From: Chromobacterium haemolyticum DSM 19808
GTDB taxonomy: Bacteria; Pseudomonadota; Gammaproteobacteria; Burkholderiales; Chromobacteriaceae
Length of the DNA stretch: 64,000 nucleotides
Reading direction: 5' to 3'
Assembly (NCBI RefSeq): GCF_000711885.1
Contig: NZ_JONK01000026.1
Span: 1 to 64,000 of the forward strand
Below are positions 22,037 to 51,937 of the stretch, piece by piece; within the stretch, counting starts at the first letter, position 1, and every line of letters starts with the position of its first letter. Position numbers and translations under genes: made by a program. The notes below the pieces were generated by a model. That model saw only the letters and a list, made by a program, of their open reading frames with translations, did no database searches and was not told where the DNA came from.

Positions 22037-22064
22037 AATGGCCCCGGCAAACGCCGGGGCCATT
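22037..22064 (+). terminator. intrinsic terminator at the island's left boundary
   Basis: AATGGCCCCGGC and GCCGGGGCCATT form a perfect 12-bp stem with a 4-nt loop. The last five bases, CCATT (22060-22064), recur at 51909-51913 beyond the other island end, so the insertion point appears to be the 3' foot of this hairpin. Confidence 0.88.
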
Positions 22065-22202
22065 TGTGGGTGACAGCATAAGCTGCGACTCAACACTTAT
22101 AAAAATCAAAACCTTATGAACACCCTAACCAGCATAAGCTGCGACTAATTGCCGGCAAAAGCTGCGATTTTCACCTGCAATTTACGCATAAGTTGCGATT
22201 TT
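22065..22202 (+). repeat. left-end repeat array of the island
   Basis: Four direct copies of a short core: CAGCATAAGCTGCGACT at 22074-22090 and again at 22130-22146, CAAAAGCTGCGATTTT at 22156-22171, and GCATAAGTTGCGATTTT at 22186-22202. Spacings are about 56, 26 and 30 bp. Arrays of this type are transposase binding sites at the ends of Tn7-like and IS21-family elements. Only one core copy was found at the right end. Confidence 0.8.
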
Positions 22203-22265
22203 CCCCACAATATAGAGTGACACGCTCCAAAAATTCATAAGTCATTGATTTTACAAGTGTAATTT

Positions 22266-22928
22266 ATGAAAAATATCCCTGTAACCGTCTTGGAGAGAAT
22301 TCTAGTTACTAGCAATAGAAGGCAGGGCTACCTTTCTCGTACGGCCCAGGCAAGTATGCGCCCAACAAAACCTCACTCCCACTGGTAAGCGAGAATTGTA
22401 TGTGGTGTCTCTTGATCTCAAATCCTTCTTTGACCAAGTCGATTCCGTAGCGCTAAGGCGCGAGCTCGTGCGGCTTGAAACAGCTCATCGGCTGAAATTT
22501 GGCCTGCCCGAACGATTGGCTCCGGACGAGCAGTTCTGGGAGTATGTTGAGCGTATCTTCAGTTGGCACTGGCGCCATGATGAACACGCGCATACGCCAC
22601 TGATAAAGGAAACCAATCAGAGAATGGCCTGCCACTGGGTTTGCCGCAGGGCCTAGTTGCTTCAGGATTCTTGGCCAACGCCTACCTGATTGGATTGGAC
22701 CAACGCCTGAACCAGGTTTCGCTCGACGGTGAAATGCTCGATGGAGAAATTAAGCTCGTAGACTATTGTCGCTATGTCGATGATATCCGTTTAGTAGTAG
22801 AGGCACCGAGCCGCTACAACGGACAAGCGCCTGATCTCCTCCTGAAGAGTGTTTGCGAATATGTGCAGACGCATCTGCAGGCCCAGTATGTTCGACAGCG
22901 TACAGATGTCAAGCCTGAAAAGTTATAA
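22266..22928 (+). pseudogene. reverse transcriptase remnant, frameshifted and truncated
   Basis: Three reading frames must be joined. ATG 22266 starts a 40-residue piece (NIPVTVLERILVTSNRRQGY). A second frame carries VVSLDLKSFFDQVDSVALRR, a typical RT motif A region. A third frame from about 22641 carries GLVASGFLANAYLIGLDQRL and the catalytic YVDD in VDYCRYVDDIRLVVEAP. The thumb and C-terminal parts are missing. It is not a group II intron RT of the usual YADD type and may derive from a defence-type (DRT/UG) or retron-related RT. It lies just inside the island's left end. Confidence 0.75.
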
Positions 22929-22988
22929 CCTCAAATAACATGGCATGACACCATCCGCACATTCAAGAGCCATTTGCCGGAGATGCTG

Positions 22989-23708
22989 ATGATTAGCACG
23001 TCAAATCCGCGAGGGAATCTATTGTTGGCCTCCTTGCCCGAAGCGGAGTGGTTACGCTGGGAGCACAAGCTGGAACCCATCGCTATGCCTCTGGGCCTAG
23101 TGCTGTACGAATCCGGGAGAACCATGACCCACGTCTACTTCCCCTGCTCCTCCATCGTGTCGCTGCTGTTTGTGACCGAGAGTGGCGCGTCGGCGGAAAT
23201 TGCCGTTGTCGGCAACGAGGGCATTATCGGCATCTCTCTATTCATGGGCGGAGAATCCACGCCGAGTCGAGCAGTGGTGCAAAGCGCAGGAGAAGGGTAC
23301 CGGCTCAAAGCACAGGCCATGAAAGAAGAATTCGACCTCGGCGGTCCGGTGTTGCACTTGCTGCTGCGCTACACTCAGGCCCTGATTACCCAAATGACCC
23401 AAACAGCAGTTTGCAACCGCCACCACTCGCTTGACCAGCAACTGTGCCGCTGGCTCCTGCTTAGCCTGGACCGCTTGCAAGGCAATGAATTGATTATGAC
23501 TCAGGAACTGATCGCAAACATGCTGGGAGTCCGTCGCGAGGGGGTTACCGAAGCCGCGCTCAAACTACAACATGCCGGATTGATTCGCTATACCCGTGGC
23601 CATATCACGATTCTCGACCGGGCCGGGCTGGAGGGCCGTACCTGCGAATGCTATGCCGTGGTCAAAAATGAGTATGACCGCCTGCTGCCCAATTGCCTCG
23701 CCACCTGA
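22989..23708 (+). CDS. Crp/Fnr family transcriptional regulator 1
   Basis: A 239-residue protein with a cyclic-nucleotide-binding-type beta roll (about 25-135; YFPCSSIVSLLFVTESGASA, EIAVVGNEGIIGISLFMGG). A helical dimer segment and a C-terminal winged helix follow (MTQELIANMLGVRREGVTEA, then ALKLQHAGLIRYTRGHITIL). The residues needed to bind cAMP in Crp are not evident and there is no N-terminal FNR cysteine set. ATG 22989 has GGAG 6 nt upstream. It is 155 nt before a paralogue of the same family. Confidence 0.88.
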   Translation: MISTSNPRGNLLLASLPEAEWLRWEHKLEPIAMPLGLVLYESGRTMTHVYFPCSSIVSLLFVTESGASAEIAVVGNEGIIGISLFMGGESTPSRAVVQSAGEGYRLKAQAMKEEFDLGGPVLHLLLRYTQALITQMTQTAVCNRHHSLDQQLCRWLLLSLDRLQGNELIMTQELIANMLGVRREGVTEAALKLQHAGLIRYTRGHITILDRAGLEGRTCECYAVVKNEYDRLLPNCLAT

Positions 23709-23863
23709 ACTACGCAGAATGTTCTCTTGAGTACGCTGGCAGACAGTCGGCCAACACTGCGAGCGGTAGCCTCGGTATCTTGATGCGCAGGAAACGTTAG
23801 CCATACGCACCATCGGTCAGCACTCGTCGGCAAGAGGGTGTCCATCATGCACCGGAGCACGCC

Positions 23864-24556
23864 GTGCCAGCTATCCAGAACCACTTAATAGAGTTATTGC
23901 CACGTACTGATCAGTTGCATCTGCTTGAACATTGCAAACTAGTCGAGCTGACGCTATCTGAAATCCTATGCGCCGCTGGCGACAAAACCCGCTACGTCTA
24001 CTTCCCTACTGGGTGCTTCATTTCCCAGGTGGCTCAGGTTGAGGGACAATTGCGGCTGGAAGTGGGCATGGTGGGCACGGAAGGCATGCTCGGTTCGCAA
24101 CTGGCACTGGGTCAGGTTACCGAACCTCTGCATGCCTTAGTGCAAGGGTCGGGAGCAGTGCTACGCATGAGTGCCAGTGCATTCAGCCAGGAGTTGCTGC
24201 GCAGCAAGGCACTACAGCGCATGCTTAACCGTTACCTATATGTACAGATGCTGCAATTGGCCACCTCGTCTAGTTGCATGCGCTTTCATCAGATCGACCA
24301 GCGTCTGGCCCGTTGGTTGCTCATGAGCCAGGACCGCGTGCATTCGGATAGTTTTCATGTAACCCATGAATTTCTTTCCATCATGCTTGGTGTACGCCGG
24401 GTCGGCGTCACCATGGCAGCCGGCTTGTTGCAGCGGAGCGGACTGATCGAGTACCACCGTGGTACGCTGACGGTACGTGATCGCAGCGGACTGGAGGCTT
24501 CAGCCTGCAGTTGCTACGCGAGAAATTGCCACACCTATCAAAGCATCATGCATTAG
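23864..24556 (+). CDS. Crp/Fnr family transcriptional regulator 2
   Basis: A 230-residue paralogue of the preceding regulator. It shares the YFPTGCFISQVAQ sensor strand, VGTEGMLGSQLALG, and the winged helix VTHEFLSIMLGVRRVGVTMA followed by AAGLLQRSGLIEYHRGTLTV. The start is GTG 23864, supported by GGAG 6 nt upstream; no in-frame ATG is nearby. Cys residues near the C-terminus (SACSCYARNCH) are unusual and could matter for sensing, but this is speculation. The pair may control island genes. Confidence 0.88.
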   Translation: MPAIQNHLIELLPRTDQLHLLEHCKLVELTLSEILCAAGDKTRYVYFPTGCFISQVAQVEGQLRLEVGMVGTEGMLGSQLALGQVTEPLHALVQGSGAVLRMSASAFSQELLRSKALQRMLNRYLYVQMLQLATSSSCMRFHQIDQRLARWLLMSQDRVHSDSFHVTHEFLSIMLGVRRVGVTMAAGLLQRSGLIEYHRGTLTVRDRSGLEASACSCYARNCHTYQSIMH

Positions 24557-24893
24557 CCCCTCCGCAATCTTGTGTGCGTCTGCGTACAGAAACTGATGCC
24601 TGATGACATAAGACTCCTTAACGGTGAGACTGAGTATTCGCATTAACTCAGTGAGTTCTGGCATTATTTAATAGGGCAGGATTGCCTACAGAAGCGGGGA
24701 CAGTCCAAGCATCTATAGCCAAGCATTCAATCAGTCATAATTTTTGAATCTATTTTTATTTCTAATTCAGAATTATGTTAGCCAGAGTACAGAGGTGGTG
24801 CGGGAATAGAGCAATACTGTTTAGGTGCTGAACTCAGATCGCCATCGATGTGTTTTTGGTACAACCTTCTTTTACCACGCCAAAGGAATTATC
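24557..24893. other. AT-rich intergenic stretch
   Basis: No gene, RNA or repeat seen. It is markedly AT-rich compared with the backbone and probably holds the promoter of the small downstream gene. The ribosome binding site AAAGGAATT sits at its right end. Confidence 0.5.
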
Positions 24894-25100: not shown

Positions 25101-25143
25101 TGTCATTTTTTTAATGACATAATTTCTGACTGATTCAGTCTTT

Positions 25144-25169
25144 AAAAAGCCCGCACTTGCGGGCTTTTT
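25144..25169 (+). terminator. intrinsic terminator after the small hydrophilic gene
   Basis: AAAAAGCCCGC and GCGGGCTTTTT form an 11-bp stem with a 4-nt loop. It can also serve transcription from the right (galE end), as it has an A-run on the other side. Confidence 0.88.
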
Positions 25170-25322: not shown

Positions 25323-26339
25323 TCAATCCAGATAACCAGACGGATTATCCTGCTGCCAACGCCAGCTGTCCCGACACATTTCCTCTAGATTACGCTCGGC
25401 TTTCCAACCAAGGCGCTGCTCTGCAGCCGCAGGATTGGCATAACAACAAGCAATATCACCACTACGCCTCTCAACTATGCGATAAGGAATGTTACGACCG
25501 CAAGCTTTGGAAAAAGCATGGATAGTTTGCAAGACCGAATAACCCTGCCCAGTACCTAGGTTGAGGGTAACAACTTCTGGCTCGCCAGTGAATATATCTA
25601 GGGCCTTGACATGAGCAATTGCTAAGTCCACGACATGAATATAGTCACGCACTCCTGTGCCATCAATAGTAGGATAGTCGTCACCATAGACCTTGAGTTC
25701 AGCTAAATTCCCCACAGCTACTTGGCTAATATATGGCATCAGATTATTTGGGACACCATTGGGATCCTCGCCAATCATTCCACTCTCATGCGCACCGACA
25801 GGATTGAAGTAGCGTAAAAGGGCAACTCGCCAGCCTACTTCGCTCCTCGCCACATCACGCAAAATATTCTCCACCATTAGCTTACTCTGGCCATACGGAT
25901 TGCCCGGTCCTAGAGGGCAATCCTCCAACAAGGCCACACCACCGGCATCTTTGTACACGGTTGCCGAAGAACTAAACACTATACAATGTACACCCGCAGT
26001 CTGCATCGACTCTAGCAGGCTCAGTGTGCCACTAACATTATTTTGATAGTAACGCAAAGGATTCGATATCGACTCGCTCACTGATTTGAGCGCAGCAAAA
26101 TGGATTACTCCATCAATTGAATGACTAGAAAAAATTTTCTGCAATACTGCCTTGTCAGCAATGTCCGCATGATAAAATTGAATTTTGTGACCCGATATCT
26201 GCTCAACGCGTTTAAGGGCTTCGAGTTTACTATTTATCAAGTTATCAATAGCAATAACCTGATGGCCTGCCGAAAATAATTCCACCATGGTGTGAGATCC
26301 AATATATCCAGCAGCACCAGTAACAAGAATATTAGCCAT
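25323..26339 (-). CDS. UDP-hexose 4-epimerase, GalE family, probable UDP-GlcNAc/GalNAc epimerase (PelX-like)
   Basis: A 338-residue short-chain epimerase. It has the NAD loop TGAAGYIGSH (residues 7-16), the catalytic SSSATVY and YGQSK (Tyr-x3-Lys). The C-terminus has the GalE-type WKAERNLEEMCRDSWRWQQD. E. coli GalE Tyr299 aligns with the second Cys of GDIACCYA; a Cys at this site is known to let the pocket accept N-acetylated sugars. Since Pel contains GalNAc and GlcNAc, and PelX epimerases occur in other pel loci, UDP-GlcNAc to UDP-GalNAc conversion is the likely role. It is the last gene of the pel transcription unit, 55 nt after the hydrolase gene. Confidence 0.88.
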   Translation of the reverse strand: MANILVTGAAGYIGSHTMVELFSAGHQVIAIDNLINSKLEALKRVEQISGHKIQFYHADIADKAVLQKIFSSHSIDGVIHFAALKSVSESISNPLRYYQNNVSGTLSLLESMQTAGVHCIVFSSSATVYKDAGGVALLEDCPLGPGNPYGQSKLMVENILRDVARSEVGWRVALLRYFNPVGAHESGMIGEDPNGVPNNLMPYISQVAVGNLAELKVYGDDYPTIDGTGVRDYIHVVDLAIAHVKALDIFTGEPEVVTLNLGTGQGYSVLQTIHAFSKACGRNIPYRIVERRSGDIACCYANPAAAEQRLGWKAERNLEEMCRDSWRWQQDNPSGYLD

Positions 26340-26394
26340 TAATAATTATCCAAAAGAAATTCGTCATCAGATACTATAAAAACCATCATTAACA

Positions 26395-27237: not shown

Positions 27238-27272
27238 CAGATAGATACAAAAGATATGTCTTATCAAATATA

Positions 27273-28643: not shown

Positions 28644-28654
28644 ACTTGATCTCC

Positions 28655-32641: not shown

Positions 32642-32652
32642 GTTCGCCACTC

Positions 32653-33186: not shown

Positions 33187-33259
33187 AGCCTTGCCCTTCG
33201 TTCACTCGACGATGTTCGAATACACCTGAAGACGGCGACTTAATCTCGCCACGCCACAC

Positions 33260-40435: not shown

Positions 40436-40930
40436 ATGCCAATGGACACACCGCGTTTCACCCCAGAATTTAAAGAAGAAGCCGTCAAACAAGTCACCGA
40501 GCGCGGCTACTCGGTGGCCGAGATTTCCGCTTGGCTTGGGGTTTCCCGCCATAGCCTGTACAAGTGGGTGAAAGCCGTCACCCCGGACAACTCGGAGAGG
40601 CAAGCGACGGAACTGATCAAGGCCAAGAGCGAGATCCTTTGCCTGAAGGCGCATGCCAAAAAAGACGCCAGGTTACTGACACTTCGCGACTCCTGGCGGG
40701 CTAGTGGAGGGTGTATGGATCGCACCGGATGCTGGGTTGGTCTGTGCGAAATCGGCAAGGCGTGTGGCAAGCACCGTGTCGCCAGAATCATGAGGCAACA
40801 CCGAATCAAGGCTCAGCGCGGCCATAAAGCCCCACGGCCCATTACAGGGCACCCCTCTTTGTTGGCCCCAACCATCCGAACCGTGAATTCACAACATCAC
40901 AGCCTGACCAAGCCTGGGTGACGGACATTA
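40436..40930 (+). pseudogene. IS3-family transposase remnant (orfA and start of orfB)
   Basis: The first ~75 residues are a typical IS3 OrfA helix-turn-helix (RFTPEFKEEAVKQVTERGYS, then VAEISAWLGVSRHSLYKWVK). The sequence jumps within a few codons to the OrfB N-terminal part (GKHRVARIMRQHRIKAQRGH). It then shifts frame just before the DQAWVTDI block that opens the catalytic core. An internal deletion and at least one frameshift make it non-functional. The DDE core is absent; the sequence at 40931 switches to what looks like a group II intron. Confidence 0.85.
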
Positions 40931-41165
40931 GTGTGCCGCAGCAAGCGGCGTAAGAGATGAGAGTACGCCCCCTCGCCATCGGCTTACAGGAGCGGGTGGC
41001 AAACCACCATGAGCGGCTTGGGTCACAACCCACGGTCGTGAGCGTCATGGAAAAGGCGTCGTAAAGACGTCAGGTCTGGATTATGGAAGACGAACAACCG
41101 TGAACTGCCGTTCAAGTGTCGAAAGTACTCATATGACATCAGAAGCGGGGGTGATGTTGCCCCGC
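40931..41165 (+). mobile_element. 5' fragment of a group II intron nested in the IS3 remnant
   Basis: Immediately after the IS3 codons for WVTDI, the sequence begins GTGTGCC, a group II intron-type 5' end. About 230 nt of structured sequence follow, with the paired segments, GGAGCGGGTGGCAAACCACC and later GTGTCGAAAGTAC, expected of domain I. No intron-encoded protein or domain V/VI follows; the element is truncated before the ferritin-like gene. The assignment is from sequence style and insertion position. Confidence 0.5.
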
Positions 41166-41247
41166 GATCAGTCAGGATGACTATTTATCATTTCACTAAC
41201 CAGACCGTTGCAAAGGTTTTTGATCTGATAATCAAGGAGTTTTGCTG

Positions 41248-41784
41248 ATGAAAAACGAAAAAGACAACTCCACCAGCAGTGCCGAACAAGACATGAGCAG
41301 CAATGCTGCCAAAAAAATGACTGATGGTGCGGTAACACAAGGCTATCGAGGTGAGCGTCACAAATTGATTGCCTTGCTCAATGCCGCCCTGGCCTCCGAG
41401 CTGGTCTGCTTTCTTCGCTATACCCGCTTCTATTACACGGTGGGTGGATTATCCAATACCGCATTGAAAGCCGAGTTCATGCAGCATGCCCGGGAAGAGA
41501 TGCCGCATGCCAACATGCTGGCAGAGCGTATTGTTCAGCTCAATGGCAAGCCTGATTTTGATCCGGAAAACCTACTGAATAATGCGCATAGCCAGTATAA
41601 TGACACCGACAAGATCCAGGCCATGATCAAGGCCAATCTGGTGGCAGAACGCATTGCCATCGAATCCTATCGCAAAATGATTCAGGAATTGAAGGACAGC
41701 GATCCCACCACCAGCTTGTTGCTGACAACGATTCTGTCGCAGGAAGAAGAGCATGCAGAAGAAATGCGCAGCCTGCTGGATTGA
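41248..41784 (+). CDS. ferritin-like diiron protein (bacterioferritin type)
   Basis: A 178-residue protein with a low-complexity N-terminus and a four-helix bundle. Diiron ligand patterns can be seen on successive helices: ALASELVCFLRY, HAREEMPHANML (E-x-x-H), LVAERIAIESY, and LSQEEEHAEEM (E-x-x-H). It likely stores iron or detoxifies peroxide. ATG 41248 is preferred, with AAGGAG upstream; a TTG at 41242 is an alternative. It is the first gene of the stress cassette on the plus strand and ends at a strong terminator. Confidence 0.88.
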   Translation: MKNEKDNSTSSAEQDMSSNAAKKMTDGAVTQGYRGERHKLIALLNAALASELVCFLRYTRFYYTVGGLSNTALKAEFMQHAREEMPHANMLAERIVQLNGKPDFDPENLLNNAHSQYNDTDKIQAMIKANLVAERIAIESYRKMIQELKDSDPTTSLLLTTILSQEEEHAEEMRSLLD

Positions 41785-41797
41785 CAACATGATGCCG

Positions 41798-41840
41798 TAT
41801 CAAGATAAAAGTCCGCGCCATGCGGACTTTTATCTTGATA
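41798..41840. terminator. bidirectional terminator between ferritin-like gene and minus-strand genes
   Basis: A perfect 19-bp inverted repeat (TATCAAGATAAAAGTCCGC and its complement) with a 5-nt loop, between convergent genes. It contains a T-run on both strands. Confidence 0.88.
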
Positions 41841-41855
41841 CAAGGTGGAGATGCT

Positions 41856-42218
41856 TCAGCAACGGCGATGAAAATAAGCAGGCACACCGTGTTGATTAGC
41901 CGGTGAGGCCGGCTGCGTCACCAACTGGTCAAACAGCATGCATACTCCGCGGGTAGCACCGCTCTCGTGGGCAAGCATGATCTGAAACAGCTGGACAATT
42001 GTCTCCTCACTTAGCTTGCCAATGTGCCGGGATGCGACACCCGCACTGATGCAATGAAAAATGGCGCGGCCATTGCCATCCAGCTCCCGAACATCATCAA
42101 TGGTAAAGCGCATGGGTACATGGGCTGAACCCATCATCAGCCAGTAACCGGCTAGCGTTACGCCTTGGTGGCTGCCTTTCAGGGTCAGAATCTGGTGCAG
42201 GATTTCATCTTCAGACAT
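41856..42218 (-). CDS. hypothetical protein
   Basis: A 120-residue protein (MSEDEILHQILTLKGSHQGV...) without signal peptide or obvious domain. The middle, FTIDDVRELDGNGRAIFHCI, looks like a small alpha/beta fold. I do not recognise it. It is the last gene of the minus-strand run that begins with cfa, 96 nt after it, so it may be co-transcribed. Confidence 0.6.
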   Translation of the reverse strand: MSEDEILHQILTLKGSHQGVTLAGYWLMMGSAHVPMRFTIDDVRELDGNGRAIFHCISAGVASRHIGKLSEETIVQLFQIMLAHESGATRGVCMLFDQLVTQPASPANQHGVPAYFHRRC

Positions 42219-42314
42219 GGTCGCTCCCGTTTCGCTAAAGGGTCATGTTTGGCTGCAGCATGCTGTAACGCTAACTAGCCGCGCAGGGCTGTGGTCGTAT
42301 TGTTGCAAAGACAC

Positions 42315-43514
42315 TCATTCGTACATGTACTGGCGGGACCACGCCAAGGTATCGGCAGGACGTCCTGCGGGCTGACACAGAATCTGGTAAATGCTGACTA
42401 CATCGTTACGGAAGGCATAGGCACACCCGGCCAGATAAATGCGCCAGATACGGTAGCGTTCCTCGCCGATTTCCTGGCGGATGCTGCTGCTGTTCTTCTC
42501 GTAATTCTGCGACCACAGGCTGAGGGTCAAGGCATAGTGACGGCGCAGGTTTTCTACATCCAGCACCTCCAGACCGCCCTGCTGCATGGAGCTTAGCGTG
42601 GTGCCGATATGGGGCAGCTGACCGCCGGGGAAAACATATTTGTCGATGAAATTGCCGGCACCGAATGGTGCATCCCGCTGACGGGTGCTGACCGAGGTGA
42701 TGCCGTGGTTCAGTGCCAGCCCATCAGGACTGAGCAGATTCACTATCTGCCGGAAGTAGTCGGCCAGCCCCTTGATGCCGACGTGTTCAAACATCCCGAC
42801 ACTGGTAATCCGGTCAAAACTGCCGGATACATCGCGATAATCCATCAGCCTGATTTCTACCCTATCCTGCACGCCGGCCTGGTTTACCCGGTGCGTGGCT
42901 TCTTCAAACTGCTGTTGTGACAGGGTAACACCCAGGCACCTGGCACCGAATTGCCGTGCCGCCCGGATGACCAGCGCACCCCAGCCACAGCCGATATCCA
43001 GCAAGGTATGCCCGCTTTGCAGCCTCACCTTGGTGAGGATATGGTCGATTTTCTTGATTTGTGCTGCCGCCAGTGTTTCATCACCTTCGGGAAAATAAGC
43101 GCAGGAGTACACCATTTCCGGTTCCAGCCACTGTGCGTAAAAGTGGTTGGACACGTCGTAGTGGTACTGAATGGCCTGGCGATCGGCCCAACGATTATGC
43201 TGAAACAGCAGCCCGGCCAGCCGCTGCAAGGGATAGGGCTTGCCACGGCGGGCCAGGGAATGCGCCATCTTAATGATGTCCTCCAGTTTGCCGTCGATGT
43301 CGACCAGGCCCCGGACATACGCTTCGCCCAGATGGTCCAGCCGCGGGGAAAGCAAGTAGCGCAAGCCGGCGGCCTTACGGATGTGCATGGTCACCAATGG
43401 CTGCTCGAACTGGCCGAAATCAATGGCCTGGCCATTGCAGACCAGGCGCGCCGGCAAGGGGCTGTGCTGCCGTAGCTGGCAGGCCAGGCGTTCTATGCGT
43501 TGTTGCCAGATCAT
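42315..43514 (-). CDS. cfa: cyclopropane-fatty-acyl-phospholipid synthase
   Basis: A 399-residue SAM-dependent enzyme that adds a methylene bridge across double bonds of membrane lipids, a late-growth and acid/solvent stress response. It has the SAM loop LLDIGCGWGALVIRAARQFG. It also has Cfa signatures: YHYDVSNHFYAQWL, YSCAYF, MFEHVG, and NFIDKYVFPGGQLP. An N-terminal lipid-binding domain spans about 1-105. ATG 43514 has AAGGA 8 nt upstream. Full length and apparently intact. Confidence 0.95.
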   Translation of the reverse strand: MIWQQRIERLACQLRQHSPLPARLVCNGQAIDFGQFEQPLVTMHIRKAAGLRYLLSPRLDHLGEAYVRGLVDIDGKLEDIIKMAHSLARRGKPYPLQRLAGLLFQHNRWADRQAIQYHYDVSNHFYAQWLEPEMVYSCAYFPEGDETLAAAQIKKIDHILTKVRLQSGHTLLDIGCGWGALVIRAARQFGARCLGVTLSQQQFEEATHRVNQAGVQDRVEIRLMDYRDVSGSFDRITSVGMFEHVGIKGLADYFRQIVNLLSPDGLALNHGITSVSTRQRDAPFGAGNFIDKYVFPGGQLPHIGTTLSSMQQGGLEVLDVENLRRHYALTLSLWSQNYEKNSSSIRQEIGEERYRIWRIYLAGCAYAFRNDVVSIYQILCQPAGRPADTLAWSRQYMYE

Positions 43515-43610
43515 GCTGTATGTCCTTGCAGAAGGAGCTGGCCTACTCGGCCAGCCAGGGTTGCGAGATGCAAAGCGACCGGCCTGCGGCAGCAGCAAGC
43601 CGTGCTGGAT

Positions 43611-44469
43611 TCAGGGTTCTGCACCTGGGCGATGCCTGAGCTCATCCGTTGTGGGCGGCCGCTGCGGGAGCATGGCATGTTCCGGCTTGTCTGGCACAGC
43701 AGCTGCACCGGCCTGCCCGGCGGGTTTGCGTATGGGTTCGGCATGGCCATCAGCGGGTCTGGCCGGGTGTGGGGGCGGCTCCGCAGAGCGGGCACGATTT
43801 GGCTGATCCGCGTTCATCGGGTGCTTGTTATCCGGCATGGCTGGCGCTGCATGGCGCGCAGTGTCTGGCATGGGCCGGAGCGACGGACGCGGCTGCGCAT
43901 CGGGAGTGGCGAGTCCGGGAGGATCGCGGTCGGTACCGTGCTGTCTTGCTTGCTGATGCTCCAGCGTTGACTGCTGCTTGAGCGAATGCGGATAGCGGTT
44001 GCCGCCATACTGTTTCTGATAGTCGGGCAGCGGACTGGCTGGCTGGCGGTACAGATTTCCTGTTCCACTGCTGCCAATCCGGGTGTTTGCGACTCCAGCC
44101 GGCCCCCCAGTGCTGGTCCCAGGGCGGCGCTTCATTGGCGCTCCTGCCCTGAAAATAGGCCGGGCGATGATGGTAATAACGCAAGGGAATGCGCCAGATG
44201 AACACGGGCACCCGGTCTGCCGCCATCGGTGTCCATGGCCCGTTATACCAGTTGCTGTAATACCAGCCATCTTCATGGAACACCCAGTAACGGCCGCCAT
44301 AGAAAAAGTAGTTGAGCTGCTGCGCAGGGTCGTAATACACCGGGTAACCCGGAATGAGGATCAGGGAAGGATAACTGCTGATGCTGATGTCAAGACGGGT
44401 TTGCGCTTGCAGGGTGGTACTGGGCCCAAGCAGCAGCGACAGGGAAATGCCAACCAGTATGTAGCGCAT
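43611..44469 (-). pseudogene. YXWGXW-type secreted protein, frameshifted at a GCCA tandem repeat
   Basis: The N-terminal frame (ATG 44469, signal peptide ending TTLQAQ) gives an aromatic repeat-rich part, including YYDPAQQLNYFFYGGRYWVF. From about 44047 the continuing family sequence, PLPDYQKQYGGNRYPHSLKQ, is in the next frame. At the junction the minus strand has CCGCCAGCCAGCCAGTCCG, three GCCA units. Removing one unit restores an unbroken 284-residue reading through VPPASPLPDYQ. It is either a broken gene or a slippage-switched one. The C-terminal half is Pro/Ala/Gln-rich. Function unknown; the family is common beside stress genes. Confidence 0.75.
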
Positions 44470-44512
44470 GGTGTTTGCTCCTGATCCCGTCCCGGCGATC
44501 CGATGATGATGG

Positions 44513-45355
44513 CTATTGACCAGACAAAGACAAGGCGGACGCATCTACCTGCCTGACGCCGCGCACGTTCTTGCTTAGTTCAATCGCCAGCGCGCGCTCG
44601 GCTTTGCTGCCCAGCCGGCCGCTCAGTGCCACCACGCCATGACGTGTCTTGACGTTGATGCTGGAGCTTTCAACATGGCTGGAGTACAGCAGGCTGGATT
44701 TCACCTTGGTGGTGATCCAGCTGTCCGAGATGCTTTGCTCGGCATGCTGGCTGGAATTTTTCACTGACTCGGCCAGCGTAGGTTTGACAGTGCTGATCTG
44801 TAGCTGATTGTCTACCGACACCACACCACGGGTGCTGCTTGCCATGCGGCTGGCCGCCTGGCTGGCACTGGCGCTATTGGCTGTTCCCTGCAAGCTGACC
44901 TTGCCCAGCTTGGTATGCACCGTCACAGCAAGCCCATCGGCGTACTTGCTCCACAGCAGTTTGGATCTGACTGCTGCGGAAATGGTGGCATCGTCGGTCA
45001 ATTCGCCATAGCTGCGGGCGGCGCTGGACTTGCTCGGCACAAAATCGCTGTTGACTTGCAGTTGGTTGTCCACGCTGGTGACGCCAGCGACAGCCAGGGC
45101 AATTTCTTTGGCCAGCTCCTTTTTCACCCCTTCCTCCACCGTACCGGTCAGCGTGACCTTGCCTTCATGCACCAGCACCCGGATGTCCTGATCGCGCAGC
45201 GATGGATTCAGGGTGTAAGTAGTGGATAGCTGGCTTTCCTGGCGTGCATCTTTTAAGTCCTGATTGCTTGCTGCCGCCTGAGCCGGGTTGTAGTTAAGCA
45301 GCGCAAGGCAGGCGACCAGGGTGGCGGGCAGCATCTGGCGGGGTAGGGTTTTCAT
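44513..45355 (-). CDS. secreted triple-BON-domain protein (OsmY-like)
   Basis: A 280-residue protein with a signal peptide (to AQAA) and three BON domains (about 50-110, 125-195, 215-280). Each ends in the pattern V..VDNQLQ or V.QVDA. OsmY-type BON proteins are periplasmic, induced by osmotic and stationary-phase stress, and stabilise the envelope or act as chaperones. ATG 45355 (MKTLPRQM) is preferred over an in-frame start at 45385. Confidence 0.9.
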   Translation of the reverse strand: MKTLPRQMLPATLVACLALLNYNPAQAAASNQDLKDARQESQLSTTYTLNPSLRDQDIRVLVHEGKVTLTGTVEEGVKKELAKEIALAVAGVTSVDNQLQVNSDFVPSKSSAARSYGELTDDATISAAVRSKLLWSKYADGLAVTVHTKLGKVSLQGTANSASASQAASRMASSTRGVVSVDNQLQISTVKPTLAESVKNSSQHAEQSISDSWITTKVKSSLLYSSHVESSSINVKTRHGVVALSGRLGSKAERALAIELSKNVRGVRQVDASALSLSGQ

Positions 45356-45430
45356 GGTGCAGTTCTCCGGTATCGGTAGTGGCAAGACAAAGGCCAGGCA
45401 CAGCGCGGCCGTGAAAATGACATCCCGCGC

Positions 45431-45730
45431 CTATTTGAGCTTGTCCAGAAAATGCTTTACCTGACGCTCGGCTTCTTCACGCGTAATGGCATAGCGCTGC
45501 TGGATCAGCCCGATCAATTTCTGCGCCTGGCCTTCGGCACGCAGCAGTTCGTCGTCGGTCAATTTGCCCCAGACAACCTTGGCCGCACCCACATGCTCCT
45601 TCCATTTGCCTTTCAGTTCATCGACGCTGGGGAAATGAAAGCTAGCGTCCTGCTTACTGATCTCGACCGAGACCTCTACCGCGCTCTGTTTGGCGGCAAG
45701 GGTTTTGTCCTGCTCGGCTGACTTGTCCAT
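45431..45730 (-). CDS. CsbD-family stress protein
   Basis: A 99-residue hydrophilic protein. The core LKGKWKEHVGAAKVVWGKLT followed by DDELLRAEGQAQKLIGLIQ is the CsbD signature, here with an N-terminal acidic/Lys extension (about 35 residues) and a C-terminal coiled tail (ITREEAERQVKHFLDKLK). CsbD-like proteins are general-stress proteins of unknown mechanism. It lies between the BON gene and the divergent PRC-barrel gene. Confidence 0.9.
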   Translation of the reverse strand: MDKSAEQDKTLAAKQSAVEVSVEISKQDASFHFPSVDELKGKWKEHVGAAKVVWGKLTDDELLRAEGQAQKLIGLIQQRYAITREEAERQVKHFLDKLK

Positions 45731-45954
45731 GAAACTCTCCTTGGTGATGGGTCTGCAGCCAGACTAGGACTTGCCCGCCAGGCCGATCTGTACGCCAGCG
45801 CACACCTCGGCAATATGTTGTGCCGGTGGATTTATCGGTCTTCGGTGTGCTGCCGAACAGTGCAGTGCTAATGGCTGGCGTAAACCGGAGCAGTAGCCAG
45901 CAATCCCTTTGGCTACGACAGAAGCAAGCCGTGCTTCGGTTTAAGGAGAAGGTG

Positions 45955-46365
45955 ATGAACCAGATGCAGCTCAATACGGATGGCAGCAATCGCACCAGCA
46001 GCAACACCGGCGGGCCAGGACCCTATCTGATGGGTGCAAACACGCTGATAGGTGACGCTGTTTTGAATCAACAAGGCGAGGGGCTGGGTGACATCAAGGA
46101 AATCATGCTGAATGTCAGCAGCGGCCAGGTGGCGTATGCCGTGCTGGCGTTTGGCGGCTTCATGGGGCTGGGCGAAAAGCTGTTTGCCGTGCCGTGGCAA
46201 GCGCTGGTGCTGGACCCCATCAACAAGCGTTTCATGCTCAACATCAGCAAGGAGCGCTTTATCCACGCGCCAGGCTTTGATAAGGACCAGTGGCCAGACA
46301 TGGCCGACCCGGCCTGGTCCAGTATCGTCCATGACTTCTACGGTACCGACCTGTACAGCGAATAA
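45955..46365 (+). CDS. PRC-barrel domain protein
   Basis: A 136-residue protein with a PRC-barrel (about 25-105; LMGANTLIGDAVLNQQGEGL, GDIKEIMLNVSSGQVAYAVL, AVPWQALVLDPINKRFMLNI). ATG 45955 is preceded by AAGGAGAAGGTG. Stand-alone PRC proteins of this type are frequent among desiccation and stress genes; the function is unknown. Divergent from csbD, and followed by a terminator. Confidence 0.88.
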   Translation: MNQMQLNTDGSNRTSSNTGGPGPYLMGANTLIGDAVLNQQGEGLGDIKEIMLNVSSGQVAYAVLAFGGFMGLGEKLFAVPWQALVLDPINKRFMLNISKERFIHAPGFDKDQWPDMADPAWSSIVHDFYGTDLYSE

Positions 46366-46370
46366 GAGCG

Positions 46371-46433
46371 GCTAACAAAATAGCGTAGTACCCCTGAAGC
46401 CAGGCGCGCCGACGCAGCAGGGGTTTTGTTAGC
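46371..46433 (+). terminator. likely terminator after the PRC-barrel gene
   Basis: GCTAACAAAA pairs with TTTTGTTAGC (46424-46433), enclosing CCCCTG (46391-46396) paired with CAGGGG (46418-46423). A composite hairpin just downstream of the stop codon. Confidence 0.55.
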
Positions 46434-46516
46434 GGACCCAAGTACTGGCAGGTGTGGGTCTGGCGGGTGCATTGCCATCCGCCTTGTGCCGCCTGCCTGT
46501 TTGCAGGAGTGTCATC

Positions 46517-46655
46517 ATGTTGGAAACAATTGCAGTGATTCTGTTTTTGCCTGGGCATGGTCACTTCCTACACCATGGGTGGGCTGATCCACCTGTTGTT
46601 GCTGTTGATGCTGATCGTGGTGGTGGCGCGTATCTTGCAAGGGCGTCGCATCTAG
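46517..46655 (+). pseudogene. small membrane protein of the Lmo0937/DUF5670 type, frameshifted
   Basis: The reading MLETIAVILFL is followed, one base out of frame, by LGMVTSYTMGGLIHLLLLLM and VVVARILQGRRI to a TAG at 46653. Together they match a ~48-residue two-helix stress membrane protein found beside CsbD and BON genes. The annotated frame alone loses the second helix. One extra base or a small deletion near 46548 explains it. A sequencing error is possible. Confidence 0.65.
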
Positions 46656-46759
46656 CCTTGCTACATCAAAGCCCCCACCAACGGGTGGAGGGCTGATGCC
46701 AGAGCCAGCCGACGCCAGCAACTGCGCGTTGCCGGCAGAGCGGGCTCAAGGAGAGATTC

Positions 46760-46963
46760 ATGCGTGCAGTGCGAAACGGATTTTGCGCAGTCATGCTGCT
46801 GGCCGGACTGGCTGGCTGTTCTTCAATGTCGGAACGCGGCAAGGATACGGCCATCGGTGCCGGCGTGGGCGCTGGCGTGGGTGCCATCCTTACCGGTGGC
46901 AGTGCGGCGGGCACGGTGGGTGGTGCTGCCGTAGGTGGCGTGATTGGCCATGAGGTGAAGTGA
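46760..46963 (+). CDS. glycine-zipper lipoprotein (OsmB-like)
   Basis: A 67-residue lipoprotein: signal sequence with lipobox LAGLAGC (Cys20) and a mature part dominated by a glycine zipper (DTAIGAGVGAGVGAILTGGS, AAGTVGGAAVGGVIGHEVK). OsmB-type proteins are osmotically induced outer-membrane lipoproteins. The ribosome binding site AAGGAGAG is good. Confidence 0.85.
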   Translation: MRAVRNGFCAVMLLAGLAGCSSMSERGKDTAIGAGVGAGVGAILTGGSAAGTVGGAAVGGVIGHEVK

Positions 46964-47074
46964 AAGCACTGCCGGCACGGGCTGATCGCTGCTTGTGCTG
47001 ATGGCACGTCACTTCATCCACCATCCGCCTACCCCATGGGCAAGCTTGCTATGCGTTGCCGAGGCCCGGAGTCT

Positions 47075-49780
47075 CTACAAGGGTTTGTCAGCGGCTCTTA
47101 ACAGGCTGCGCAACACGAAGGGCATCCCGCCATGGCGGCAGTAGTCCACTTCGGTTGCGGTATCTACCCGCAACAACAAAGTACAGCGTCGGCAAGTACC
47201 ATCGGGGTAGTCGATATACAGTTGTACCGGCTGTGCCGGAAGCAGTGTATTTTCCAGCCCCTCCAGCGTGAACAATTCCCTGCCAGTCAGCCCAAGCGAC
47301 GCGATGCAGTCCCCTGCCATGAATTGCAGCGGCAACACCCCCATGCCCACCAGATTGGCACGGTGGATGCGCTCGAAGCATTCTGCAATGACCGCACGCA
47401 CACCAGGCAGTGCCGTTCCTGTCGCCGCCCAGTCCCGGCTTGACCCGCTACCATATTCCTTGCCGGCAATAATCAGCAATGCCACCTGCTCCGCCTGATA
47501 ACGCCGGGCAATATCATGGATGAAGCCTTGCTGGCCATCCGGCTGGTGCAGGGTCATGCCACCGGTGACCGGCCTGCCGTCTGCAGCCGGTAGCAACATC
47601 AGGTTGCGTATCCTGATATTGGCAAAAGTGCCACGTACCATGACTTCGTGATTACCCCGGTGCGAGCCGTAGCTGTTGAAGTCTGCGGGCGTAATGCCCA
47701 GTTGCTGCAGATAGAGGACAGCACAGGAGTCTGTGGTAATACTGCCTGCCGGGCTGATGTGATCGGTGGTGACCGAATCACCAAACAGCGCCAGCACCCT
47801 GGCCTGCCGTATTGCCTGCCGTGGCGGCGGTACATCTAGCGCTACCGCATCAAGAAAGGGCGGACGGGCAATATAACTGGAAGGTGGCCAGCTGTAGGAC
47901 TGCTGCGGGTTGAGCGGCAGCGCCTGCCACAAGGAGGCGTCAGGCACTTGATACAAGCGTGGATAGCTTGCCGGGTCTTCCGCATCACGCATGGCGCTGT
48001 CTATTTCCTGCTGGCTTGGCCACAGCATGGACAAATAGACGGCATTGCTTGTGCGTCCTGGCCAAGTGGCTCGCTGCCCAGGTCGATGCCTATCCGTCCG
48101 GCAAGGGAAAAAGCCACGACCAGCGGTGGACTCATCAGGAAGTTGGCGCGTAGCGCCGGATGAATACGCGCTTCGAAATTGCGATTACCGGACAACACGG
48201 CGGCACAGACAAGATCCCCCTGGACAATCTCCTGTTCCAGTACCGTGTCCAGCGGCCCCGAATTGCCAATGCAGGTGGTACAGCCATAGGCCACCAGTTG
48301 AAACCCCAGCTGCGCCAGTGGTTCCAGCAAGTCGGCGCGGTGCAGGTAGTCTGCGTACCACTTGCGAGCCGGGGGCCAGCGAGGTCTTGATGTGGCTCGG
48401 CACTTTCAAGCCCAGTGCCACCGCCTTGCGCGCCAGCAGGCCGGCCGTCAGCATGCTGCCTGGATGCGAGGTATTGGTGCAGGAGGTGATGGCAGCAATC
48501 ACGATGTCGCCATGCGTCAGTTGCCTGGTTTGCGCCGGGTGCGGCGACCTATCGCTGGCCACCCCGCCCTTGCCAAACCCACCCTGCTCGACTGGGGCAA
48601 ACAGCGTGCTCATGAAACTTTGCTTCAACTGACGCAGCGAGATGCGATCCTGCGGCCGGCGCGAGCCAGCCAAGCAGGGCTCGATGTCTGCCAGGTTGAC
48701 GTTGATGATGCGGCTGTAGTCGATCTCGCCCAGGCATGGCATGCCGAACATCTGCTGCACCTGGAAATAGGCCTGAAAAGCAGCCACCTGCTCGCGGTCC
48801 CTGCCGGTGGCAATCAGGTAGGCCACGGTTTGATGATCGGGTGGGAAATACGCCACGGTGGCACCATACTCCGGGGCCATATTGGCAATAGTGGCGAGGT
48901 CCGGCACGGTGAGCCGAGCGGCCCCGTGCCCAAAGAATTCGACAAAAGCACCCACCACACCCGACTTGCGCAGCAGCGCGGTCAGGGTGAGAACCACATC
49001 CGTGGCAGTCACCCCCGCCGGCAAGTGTCCGTGCAGATGCACGCCCACCACGTCGGGCTGCAACAAGAACACCGGCAGTCCCAGCATGGCAGACTCCGCC
49101 TCGACCCCGCCTACACCCCAGCCCAGCACGCCCAGCCCGTTGATCATGGTGGTATGTGAATCGGTGCCAACCAGCGTATCGGGAAAGTAAATTCGATCAT
49201 CTCGGCTCAGACCTGGTGCCAGATACTCCAGATTCACCTGATGAACAATGCCGCGTCCGGGTGGTGTGACCTGCAGATTGGCAAAGGCGTGCTGACTCCA
49301 TTTGATGAAACGGTAGCGTTCGGCATTGCGCTGATATTCCAGCAGCAGGTTGCGCTGCAAGGCATCGGCTTCGCGGAAGAAATCCACCTGTACCGAATGA
49401 TCCACCACCAGATGCACCGGTATCTTCGGCGTGATCAGCGCGGGCGACCTTCCCAGGCGAATGGTGGCATCGCGCATGGCCGCCAGATCGCACAGCAAGG
49501 GCAGGCCGGTGAAGTCCTGCAGCAGGATACGCGCCACCACGAAAGGGATTTCCGTATTACGCTCCACTTGCGGCTGCCAGCTGGCCAACTGGCGCACATG
49601 GGCCTCGGTCACCCGCCCGCCATCCAGATTACGCAGCAGCGATTCCAGCATGATCCGCAAGGACACCGGCAGCCGCGCGATGGCACCAAAGCCCTGCTGT
49701 TGCAGCAAAGGCAGGGCGTAGTACAAACCGACCTGCCCCTGTCCGAAGGAGAATTCGCGTAAATAGCTGGCACTGTGCAT
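47075..49780 (-). pseudogene. acnA: aconitate hydratase AcnA with two compensating frameshifts
   Basis: Start ATG 49780 (GGAGG upstream). The first frame runs to KTSLAPGSQVV near 48350, and the second carries the cluster motif LVAYGCTTCIGNSGPL. From about 48045 the third frame runs to 47075 and includes LFGDSVTTDHISPAGSI and GKEYGSGSSRDWAATGT. Correcting one extra C after GTGGTA and one missing G in CAAGCAATG gives an intact ~901-residue AcnA with all [4Fe-4S] cysteines (SCTNTS, GCTTC). E. coli AcnA is 891 and is the stress-stable aconitase. Truly broken, or sequencing error. Confidence 0.88.
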
Positions 49781-50037
49781 GGTGTGGCCTCCTGCAAGGA
49801 GTGTTGCGTTTCCATGCTGGCCGCCGGATGGCGCTGGCCAAGCAGGAAGTGGCATCGTGTCAGCTGCATGCCGCATATTCTGTGCGCAAGCATACATAGC
49901 CGACAGCCCCTGCCCTTGCAGCCCGGCGACCATTGGCCAGCACGGCATGCAAACGATGCCTCCTGTGTGCGCTAGCCAACAGACCGATCTGCGTGTTCGG
50001 CTCAGCCTTTACTCGTCTCATACAAAGGAGTGACGTC

Positions 50038-50694
50038 ATGATCAAGAATGATTCCCAGTTGCAAAGTGATGTCCTGGCCGAACTGAAATGGGACCCAGCG
50101 GTCACCGCTACCCACATCGGAGTGGAAGCCAATCAGGGCGTCATTACCCTGAGCGGCCATGTCGCCAACTTTGCCGAGAAGTGGGCCGCTGAAAAAGCCA
50201 CCCAGCGTGTGGTTGGTGTGCAGGCGATTGCAGTAGAGATCGCCGTTGATCTGCCCGGATCGGACAAACGCAGTGATGCCGATGTATCGCGCGCAGCAGC
50301 CAATGCCTTGCAGTTGATGGAAGGAAGCTGCGGCAAATCCATCAAGGTGATGGTGGAGAACGGCTGGGTCACCTTATCCGGTGATGTGGAGTGGGACTTC
50401 CAGCGCAAGGCCGCCATCCGCTTGCTCCGGCATGTCAGCGGAGTGACTGGAGTCAGCAGCACCATCAACATCCGCCCGAAGCTGCAGATGCTAGCGGTGA
50501 AAGACGAAGTGGAAGCGGCACTGAAGCGCCGCGCCATTGCCGACATCAACAGCATTACCGTCAGTATCGATGGCCCGGACATCACCCTGGGCGGCACAGT
50601 CCATAGCTGGTCTGAACGCGCACTGGCCAATCATGCTGCAGCCTGCCTGCCAGGGGTGCGGAATGTCATCGACAACATCCGCGTTGTCATCTGA
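50038..50694 (+). CDS. cytoplasmic triple-BON-domain protein
   Basis: A 218-residue protein of three BON domains (about 3-70, 80-145, 150-218), for example VEANQGVITLSGHVANFAEK and NGWVTLSGDVEWDFQRKAAI. Unlike the OsmY-like protein in this cassette it has no signal peptide, so it is predicted cytoplasmic. AAAGGAG precedes the ATG. It is divergent from acnA and 51 nt upstream of the next gene, which is probably co-transcribed. Confidence 0.9.
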   Translation: MIKNDSQLQSDVLAELKWDPAVTATHIGVEANQGVITLSGHVANFAEKWAAEKATQRVVGVQAIAVEIAVDLPGSDKRSDADVSRAAANALQLMEGSCGKSIKVMVENGWVTLSGDVEWDFQRKAAIRLLRHVSGVTGVSSTINIRPKLQMLAVKDEVEAALKRRAIADINSITVSIDGPDITLGGTVHSWSERALANHAAACLPGVRNVIDNIRVVI

Positions 50695-50745
50695 ACCCAC
50701 CAACGGCGGCATTGTCTTGTTGCCCGGCCATGGAGGACATGCATC

Positions 50746-51249
50746 ATGGAACATGAAAAATCATCGGTTTATGTTTACAACACCCACCAGGAGGCGGAGG
50801 AGGCCATCCGAGTTCTCAGTCGTTCTGGTTTTGATGTGAAAAAGCTTTCTTTGATCGGAAAGGGTTATCACAGCGAGGAATTCCCGGTCGGGTTTTATAG
50901 CACCGGCGACAAAATCAAAACCTGGGGCGGCATCGGTGCGTTCTGGGGAGGTTTGTGGAGCTTGTTGCTGGCACCGGCTGTGTTCATGATCCCGGGGCTG
51001 GGCCTGCTGGCCATGGCCGGGCCGGTGGTGACCGCGCTAGTTGGCGGGGTGGAAGGTGCCGTCATCATTGGCGGATTGTCCGCCGTGGGCGCTGCGCTCA
51101 CCCGCATCGGTGTCAGCGGCGAGGAAGCTATCAAGTATGAGTCAGCGCTCAAGGCAGACAAGTATGTGTTGATGGTACATGGCTCGCTGGAAGACATTGC
51201 CAAGGCGCACTCTGTTCTGGCGAATCAGACGAGTTGGCAAACTGCCTGA
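50746..51249 (+). CDS. Gly/Ala-rich membrane protein, general stress/DUF1269-like
   Basis: A 167-residue protein. The N-terminal ~50 residues (SSVYVYNTHQEAEEAIRVLS) resemble the heat-induced/general stress protein 17M domain. Two hydrophobic Gly-rich helices follow (about 66-90 and 92-125; MAGPVVTALVGGVEGAVIIG). The C-terminus, YESALKADKYVLMVHGSLED, repeats an alpha/beta unit. Likely an inner-membrane stress protein. It has GGAGG upstream and is the last confident gene of the island. Confidence 0.82.
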   Translation: MEHEKSSVYVYNTHQEAEEAIRVLSRSGFDVKKLSLIGKGYHSEEFPVGFYSTGDKIKTWGGIGAFWGGLWSLLLAPAVFMIPGLGLLAMAGPVVTALVGGVEGAVIIGGLSAVGAALTRIGVSGEEAIKYESALKADKYVLMVHGSLEDIAKAHSVLANQTSWQTA

Positions 51250-51881
51250 AACAAGCATTAACCGTATGCCTTGCGCTCCAGTGGTACTGGCCGCAGGGCA
51301 TTTCTTGCTTTCGCCCAATGCCGACTCATGGTCGTGCAAACTAGCCTGATCCTATGCAGCTCACCATCGGCAGCCCGCCCACTTTATTCCTTCCCCTTGT
51401 GACAGGAGTAGCAGTTCCAGGTGCAATACTTCTGCCAGTACCTTGCTGCATTCTTTGGACAACAGAGCCTGCAGGCACCATTGAAGGCATAAGAAAAAAT
51501 ATTCTCGCGACTCCTTGAGTTGAGCAGAAAGCCAACATCCGCATTTCCTCCAGCCTCACGGCCGTCCTCGGATACCGTGGGCGAATAATGAAGTCCTGCT
51601 TAACTAGGCATACTATCTGGACCAGCAATACATTTTTGTAACATCAAAGAAAACATTTTCTCATGATGATCAACACATACCGGTCCGGTTGGACATCAAG
51701 AAGAGCGCAACAACAACCAATCATCTCCTTGAGCATCTTGGCAACAAGGCTACCTTTTTTTGGCATGGCGCACCTTGTCAACTAGCCACGAGTGGAAAAG
51801 CCTACCTCATCAAACCGGGTTCCAATCCCCAATACACTGGAGTTACAGTTCGGGAAGGACATTTATCTCCTTAAGTGGCAA
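51250..51881. other. gene-poor right flank of the island
   Basis: No confident gene. A 61-codon reading at 51689-51874 (plus; MDIKKSATTTNHLLEHLGNK) is of marginal coding quality, without a clear ribosome binding site, and I do not recognise its product. No second copy of the end-repeat core was found here. Confidence 0.5.
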
Positions 51882-51908
51882 AGTCGCAGCTTATGCTGTC
51901 ACTCACAA
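51882..51908 (-). repeat. right terminal inverted repeat of the island
   Basis: Read on the minus strand it begins TTGTGAGTGACAGC and continues ATAAGCTGCGACT. It differs from the left end only by A for G at position 6. CCATT follows at 51909-51913, as it precedes the left end. Confidence 0.8.
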
Positions 51909-51937
51909 CCATTGTCGTCAATCAACCCGTCTCAAGC

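What the first reader, a model, noticed from the sequence alone, without database searches (positions are those of the whole stretch)
22060..51913. A ~29.8 kb Pel-plus-stress island bounded by inverted repeats and a CCATT direct repeat, without a visible transposase
The two ends match at 26 of 27 positions in inverted orientation, and CCATT abuts both ends. The left copy of CCATT is the foot of a terminator hairpin, and the right flank runs straight into the nrdJ gene, so backbone genes appear continuous without the island. The content (matrix polysaccharide, regulators, stress genes, several element remnants) is accessory in character. Ends of this form belong to DDE (rve) transposons such as Tn7-like or IS21-family elements. 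Mobilisation of a complete pel operon this way would be new to my knowledge; that part is inference.
Basis: partly seen in the sequence, partly recalled or inferred. Interest (0 to 1): 0.8.

Follow-up and report, generated by a model that had tools for sequence, protein, structure and literature searches.

The report
Tn7-like island beside nrdJ gene
A 29.8-kilobase block carrying a complete-looking biofilm-polysaccharide operon and stress genes sits between the two ends of a crippled Tn7-like jumping element whose relatives insert about 30 bases after one particular enzyme gene, nrdJ.

Summary
In detail: ends at 22064 and 51908 match at 26 of 27 positions, and four sister genomes have the uninterrupted site with one CCATT. 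The ends are those of a Tn7-like transposon lineage found at the 3' end of nrdJ. A scan blind to nrdJ found the end in 6 of 61 family genomes, all at nrdJ or, in one, 2 kb past it. Nine loci have an end 27-31 nt after the nrdJ stop. One, G917 of another family, is a 21-kb element with tnsA-tnsB-tnsC-tnsD, a 5-bp duplication and CATAA repeats spaced 12/33/55 and 68/91/122, as in G014/G034 and in the window's far end. The window copy has no detectable tns gene and only 33 bp of the conserved nrdJ-side end, so it is a non-autonomous derivative. One-hop arrival of its cargo, including pel, is likely but not shown; G010 has a 90%-identical pel operon elsewhere. I found no paper naming nrdJ as a Tn7-like attachment site; supplements were not readable.

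The parts
22060..22064 (.). left copy of target duplication CCATT (3' foot of terminator hairpin 22037-22064)
   Evidence: single copy in four empty-site relatives
22065..22206 (+). far (left) transposon end: TGTGGG... with four TnsB-type sites, CATAA at offsets 12, 68, 122 and CAAAA at 91 from TGT
   Evidence: same 68/91/122 spacing in G917 and G002
22306..22928 (+). reverse-transcriptase remnant in two frames; the second piece matches RVT_1 (PF00078) at 2.3e-06, just below the curated cut-off; the first piece matched nothing
22974..24556 (+). two Crp/Fnr-type regulators (22974-23708, 23864-24556)
25323..26339 (-). NAD-dependent sugar epimerase/dehydratase gene
   Evidence: PF16363, PF01370
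26395..39911 (-). pel operon: GH114 gene, pelG, pelF, pelE, pelD, pelC, pelB, pelA; G, D, B by named Pfam models, F by its DUF3492 and glycosyltransferase domains, A by a GH114 match below cut-off and its place, C and E by gene order only (recalled)
   Evidence: 90% identical to G010 over 26394-39779
40436..41075 (+). transposase fragment (HTH_Tnp_1; IS3-type by recall) followed by a group II intron fragment (40959-41075, RF01999)
41242..51249 (.). stress-type cargo: ferritin-like, cyclopropane-fatty-acid synthase, BON (two genes), PRC-barrel, aconitase split over three ORFs (47075-49948, -), YflT-domain gene
51875..51907 (-). nrdJ-side (right) end: 33 bp identical to the G014 end, then similarity stops; one CATAA site, against two in G002 and three in G014 and G034
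51908..51908 (.). extra A between ...ACA and CCATT
51909..51913 (.). right copy of target duplication CCATT
51938..54907 (-). nrdJ (class II ribonucleotide reductase; class by recall, barrel domain by Pfam), the inferred attachment gene; stop codon 30 nt from the transposon end

Best explanation
The block is a non-autonomous, decayed Tn7-like transposon (far end 22065, nrdJ-side end 51907) inserted at a chromosomal attachment site about 30 bp after the nrdJ stop codon. Inferred mechanism, by homology: a TnsD/TniQ protein binds the conserved 3' end of nrdJ, TnsC relays this, and TnsA+TnsB cut and paste the element, leaving a 5-bp duplication. The array of CATAA-centred repeats in each end would be the TnsB sites. 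Shown: ends, duplication, empty sites, near-constant distance and orientation at nrdJ, and a relative with the same end geometry and tnsABCD. Inferred: the window copy arrived with its tns genes or was moved in trans, and later lost the inner part of its nrdJ-side end, the side where the tns genes of G917 and G131 lie. Less certain: the pel and stress genes came in as cargo of the same hop.
For: Empty site in 4 of the 17 other genus genomes with an nrdJ match; all four lack PelG. A second insertion/empty pair: G002 has a 2-kb element between the same two ends (CCGTG/CCATG), and G006 has the uninterrupted site with CCATG. Blind to nrdJ, the 21-bp end at up to 2 mismatches occurs in 6 of 61 family genomes: five next to nrdJ, and the sixth, G040, keeps a far end about 2 kb past nrdJ. 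Distance from nrdJ stop to TGT (TGC in G017): window 30, G014 30, G002 27, G047 28, G034 31, G008 31, G017 31, G131 30, G917 29, i.e. the 9 loci in which I found an nrdJ-side end. G917 has CATAA at 12/33/55 in its nrdJ-side end, the offsets of G014 and G034, and at 68/91/122 in its far end; the window and G002 have the same far-end spacing with CAAAA at 91. These two patterns hit nothing but element ends in 2,622,236 strand positions of the loci then held, overlapping loci counted repeatedly. G917 has AATAT on both sides and Pfam-supported tnsA, tnsB, tnsC, tnsD. Benler 2021 (passages): related transposases have similar TnsB-site architecture; outermost predicted sites are offset from the boundary by a median of 12 bp.
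Against: No tns gene and no tns remnant seen in the island (tblastn of three tnsABCD sets, E<=0.1: no island hit). No transposon with both the window's repeat sequence and tns genes was found; the G917 sites share CATAA and spacing, not the rest. Only 3 of the 9 nrdJ-side ends have the full 12/33/55 pattern (G014, G034, G917); G002 has 12/34, G131 12/33, and the window, G047, G008 and G017 a single site (offset 9 in the last two). The far end of G040 does not meet the far-end pattern, and the far ends of G131, G014, G017, G008, G034 and G047 were not found in the stretches fetched. G131 and G917 were picked because nrdJ lay near tns genes, so their being at nrdJ is not an independent sign of preference: of 33 TnsA-bearing genomes with an nrdJ match only G131 had TnsA beside it, and 13 of 15 stretches upstream of related tnsD genes had no nrdJ. 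The duplication is off by one base. That TnsD recognises nrdJ is inferred from position. One-hop arrival of the cargo is not shown.
Confidence: 0.9

Rival explanations
1. A short Tn7-like element (like the 2-kb one of G002) inserted beside nrdJ, and the pel and stress genes accumulated inside it afterwards by IS elements, recombination or other islands.
For: A mini-element with both ends exists in G002. The G010 pel locus shares only 26394-39779 with the window. The island holds a transposase fragment, a group II intron fragment and an RT fragment. G+C varies by module from 46% to 61%.
Against: The whole interval is missing from the site in the four empty-site species. Large, mixed cargo is normal for Tn7-like elements (recalled; the Benler 2021 abstract was seen only up to '96% of these transposons carry at').
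Confidence: 0.35
2. The end arrays are coincidental motifs and the block is an ordinary island placed by homologous recombination or an integrase.
For: The only transposase-type match in the island is one fragment. The motif at up to 3 mismatches is not in excess in the window.
Against: Target duplication, empty sites, near-constant distance and orientation in nine loci, and array spacing shared with a tnsABCD element. No integrase-family match among the 27 island ORFs given to Pfam.
Confidence: 0.02
3. The element is of the Tn402/Tn5053 or IS21 group rather than a Tn7-type element with tnsA and tnsD.
For: Those groups also carry rve-family transposases and short target duplications (recalled).
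Against: The tns-bearing elements at the same site carry a TnsA endonuclease gene and a 510- or 629-aa TniQ protein. For the window itself this is by relatedness of the ends only.
Confidence: 0.05

Closest known systems
Tn7 (TnsABC+D at attTn7, 3' of glmS)
   Same: Site-specific insertion shortly after a conserved gene, controlled orientation, spaced TnsB sites in the left end and close ones in the right end (PMC11406308 passages; PMC2918618 start of abstract in listing). TGT ends: recalled.
   Different: Attachment gene is nrdJ, not glmS; repeat built on CATAA; the window copy has no tns genes and a truncated right end.
Other Tn7-like elements with TniQ/TnsD or TnsF selectors (tRNA, parE, comM sites)
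   Same: tnsABC plus a selector protein, cargo, insertion at safe sites (passages).
   Different: 'nrd' has 0 occurrences in the main text of PMC10293859, PMC8649781 and PMC11406308, and no library paper holds both 'Tn7-like' and 'nrdJ'.
Tn7-like element of G000 contig C15, downstream of an msrB-like gene (gene judged by eye)
   Same: Same genome, tnsABCD-type genes; TnsB 35% identical to that of G917.
   Different: No hit to either array pattern in its 20-kb locus, and a different neighbouring gene.

Membership tests
Tn7-like transposons | 5'-TGT...ACA-3' termini | tested here: met
   TGTGGG at 22065...CTCACA ending 51907
Tn7-like transposons | Arrays of about 20-bp TnsB sites, spaced in the left end, close in the right end | tested here: met
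   Left end 12/68/91/122 in the window. The right end is down to one site in the window; relatives have 12/33/55 (G014, G034, G917) or 12/34 (G002). That TnsB binds them was not tested
Tn7-like transposons | 5-bp target duplication | tested here: met
   CCATT on both sides with one extra A on the right; G917 AATAT/AATAT; G002 CCGTG/CCATG with CCATG in the empty relative
Tn7-like transposons | Near-fixed distance and orientation at one chromosomal gene | tested here: met
   27-31 nt after the nrdJ stop in the 9 loci with an nrdJ-side end
Tn7-like transposons | tnsA, tnsB, tnsC and a tnsD/tniQ selector in the element | tested here: not met
   Not found in the window island; present in G917 and G131 at the same site. 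Hence filed as a non-autonomous derivative, not as a working Tn7-like element
Tn7-like transposons | TnsD binds the attachment gene and directs insertion | not testable with these tools
   Inferred from position only
IS21 family | istA/istB genes (recalled) | tested here: not met
   No such Pfam match among 27 island ORFs
Tn402/Tn5053 group | Lacks tnsA; inserts at res/par sites (recalled) | tested here: not met
   The window copy sits at nrdJ; relatives with the same end geometry or site carry tnsA

The most novel reading that the evidence does not exclude
A lineage of Tn7-like transposons present in at least two bacterial families has specialised on the 3' end of the class II ribonucleotide reductase gene as its safe harbour, and in one Chromobacterium it delivered a complete Pel biofilm operon with stress genes in one hop, then lost its transposition genes so that the trait became fixed in place.
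Probability: 0.5. Interest if true: 0.65.

Novelty: new member of a known kind. Interest (0 to 1): 0.5.

Why it matters
It adds a candidate attachment gene, nrdJ, to the chromosomal sites used by Tn7-like elements, with tns-bearing elements (G917, G131) that make the target specificity directly testable. It shows how a genomic island that appears to lack any transposase can be assigned by end architecture alone. It also gives a concrete route by which a whole biofilm-matrix operon could enter a genome without damaging a gene.

Tried and rejected
An exact 19-mer scan of the GTDB collection gave four contigs: C. alticapitis and P. subflava at nrdJ, a Pseudogulbenkiania MAG 2 kb past nrdJ, and a Cohnella hit taken as chance and not followed. 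G014, which has the same 19-mer, was not among them, so that scan does not cover all genomes. Left-end and right-end DNA found nothing in plasmids. The G014 right end found only the window among 300 order genomes; the query's own genome was evidently not in that sample. A viral-contig scan with a 17-mer gave two hits that I did not examine. No TniQ match lies beside nrdJ in any of the 18 genus genomes with an nrdJ match (positions compared). The tnsD of G131 matched 7 of 369 class genomes; by E-value the best is the window's own C15 element at 25% identity. In the family of G131 it gave 24 hits in 20 of 187 genomes. I fetched 15 stretches from 14 of these genomes (one cut short by the contig end), and 2 contained nrdJb: G917, accepted, and G866, where nrdJb is followed by other genes and a broken second nrdJb end and no tnsABC match was seen; G866 is not counted among the nine. 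The G131 far end was sought and not found. G117 has TnsA and nrdJ on one contig 75 kb apart; its fetched stretches had no close match to the window repeat, not pursued. The own-genome element on contig C15 was considered as a helper and put aside because its locus has no array-pattern hit. In G917 a second ...ACAAATAT at about 2930 was dropped because it lacks the array spacing. The tblastn gave two hits, neither judged to be a tns remnant: one lies in the window outside the island, the other inside the nrdJ region of L045. Two weak hits (E 0.010 and 0.043) lie in G017 stretches, not in the island.
Full report
Observation. The inverted ends and CCATT copies are real and at the stated places. 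The match is 26 of 27 when the T/A next to the TGT/ACA is included and 25 of 27 when the ends are registered at TGT; about 2e-5 such pairs would be expected in 64 kb. The right copy of CCATT is separated from ...ACA by one A. The left CCATT is the foot of a perfect 12-bp hairpin. The repeat GCATAARYTGCGAYT has five hits with 0-1 mismatch, all in the two ends; at up to 3 mismatches its count (7) is not above chance (10 expected).

Empty sites. Of 19 genomes of the genus searched with the nrdJ flank, 18 match, the window's own included. In four of the 17 others (L004-L007) the left flank runs straight into nrdJ with one CCATT. In four more (G008, G017, G014, G002) a related end lies at the same place near nrdJ. 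The remaining nine show no such end in the roughly 110-150 bp inspected. One of the nine, G006, is itself the uninterrupted counterpart of the G002 insertion: its CCATGCTGAAACTTATGGCGGATC is what stands outside the far end in G002.

A near-fixed attachment site. The 21-bp end with up to two mismatches, searched without regard to nrdJ, occurs in 6 of 61 family genomes. Five of them carry it next to nrdJ: the window, G002, G014, G034 and G047. The sixth, G040, has a far end about 2 kb past nrdJ and no recognisable near end. Degenerate ends in G008 and G017 are also at nrdJ. From nrdJ stop codon to TGT (TGC in G017) the distances are 30 (window), 30 (G014), 27 (G002), 28 (G047), 31 (G034), 31 (G008), 31 (G017), 30 (G131) and 29 (G917), although the intergenic sequences are mostly unrelated. 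The same end faces nrdJ: about 110-150 bp of it, or more, is conserved pairwise among G014, G002, G008, G017 and P. subflava, while the window keeps only 33 bp; G034 has the near-end array; in G131 and G917 it is the side of tnsA. Contig lengths and record titles show that G002 is C. alticapitis, G047 P. subflava and G040 a Pseudogulbenkiania MAG.

Tns-bearing relatives. A TnsA search of 399 order genomes gave 65 with a match. An nrdJ search of these 65 gave 33 with a match, and in one, G131, the two are neighbours: a tnsA-tnsB-tnsC-tnsD set begins 470 bp after nrdJb, the second half of a split nrdJ. A search of 187 genomes of that family with its TnsD gave 20 with a match. Of 15 stretches fetched upstream, 2 contain nrdJb; 13 do not, so related TnsD proteins mostly sit elsewhere. 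In G917 nrdJb is followed, after about 2.4 kb, by tnsABCD. Its nrdJ-side end starts 29 nt after the stop with CATAA at offsets 12, 33 and 55. Its far end lies about 21 kb away with CATAA at 68, 91 and 122, and AATAT flanks both. G014 and G034 have 12/33/55. The window and G002 have 68/91/122, with CAAAA at 91. In 2,622,236 strand positions of the loci then held (overlapping loci counted repeatedly), the near-end pattern hit 8 records (3 places: G014, G034, G917) and the far-end pattern, allowing one mismatch in 15, 9 records (3 places: window, G002, G917). The other near ends do not meet the full pattern: G002 12/34, G131 12/33, and a single site in the window, G047, G008 and G017. G131's far end was not found. 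G131 and G917 were chosen for nrdJ next to tns genes, so what they add is the distance and the array spacing, not a count of preference. Among the tnsABCD sets of G917, G131 and the own-genome C15 element, TnsB proteins are 33-35% identical.

What the window copy is. No tns gene is seen among 27 island ORFs, and tblastn with three tnsABCD sets gives no island hit at E<=0.1. With one TnsB-type site left in the nrdJ-side end it should not transpose as it stands; this is inference, by analogy with Tn7 (recalled, with passages of PMC11406308 on end sites). G131 and G917 carry their tns genes on that side, so one deletion there could have removed both the inner end and the genes.

Cargo. Left to right: RT remnant, two Crp/Fnr regulators, a sugar epimerase gene, the pel operon, transposase and group II intron fragments, then ferritin-like, cyclopropane synthase, BON, PRC-barrel, split aconitase, BON and YflT genes. 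G+C is 46-61% by module against 62-65% in the backbone. PelG is found in 5 of 61 family genomes and in 2 of the 19 genus genomes. G010 has the pel operon at 90% DNA identity over 26394-39779, the only window match on its 70.7-kb contig, which begins 0.9 kb before it. PelG matches on plasmids reach 62% identity at most.

Literature. 'Tn7-like' with 'nrdJ': 0 papers. 'Tn7-like' with 'Chromobacterium': 0 papers. Two broader searches: the 12 of 425 and 25 of 902 papers listed show no such report by title. 'Tn7-like' with Pel and exopolysaccharide: 3 papers, none on a Tn7-borne pel operon by title and abstract start. pel operon with horizontal transfer: 12 of 36 listed, seen as listing only. Passages only were seen of PMC10293859, PMC8649781 and PMC11406308. 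Supplementary tables could not be read, so nrdJ may be listed there.

Verdict. A true transposon boundary of a Tn7-like, nrdJ-addressed lineage; the window copy is a non-autonomous remnant with cargo. The family assignment is firm, the nrdJ-binding step is inferred, and one-hop arrival of pel is the weaker part of the claim.

Noticed in passing
L084 8906-14251 (G000 contig C15), L093: A second tnsABCD-type set in the same genome lies downstream of an msrB-like gene (judged by eye); G014 has a related one (89.5% over 4.1 kb) after the same gene.
   Followed up: partly
L115-L118 (G010 contig C31): A 90%-identical pel operon in another Chromobacterium at another locus, beside oxidoreductase- and nitroreductase-like genes (judged by eye).
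   Followed up: partly
L150 5602-7608 (G866): nrdJb followed by other genes and then a broken second copy of the nrdJb 3' end, with a TniQ-type gene further on: another element may use the same gene end.
   Followed up: no
window 40959-41075: Group II intron fragment (RF01999, 94 bits) directly after a transposase fragment.
   Followed up: no
window 47075-49948: Aconitase gene split over three overlapping ORFs, so probably broken.
   Followed up: no
L047 2746-4790: In a Pseudogulbenkiania MAG the nrdJ-adjacent element holds a phosphotransferase-family (APH, PF01636) gene and an IS5-like transposase fragment (the latter judged by eye).
   Followed up: no
L045 3387-3401: A second, inner, degenerate end copy 200 bp inside the nrdJ-side end in P. 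subflava, as if elements had inserted in tandem.
   Followed up: no
L122, L123 (IMG/VR contigs): One exact match each to CAGCATAAGYTGCGAYT; not examined, could be chance.
   Followed up: no
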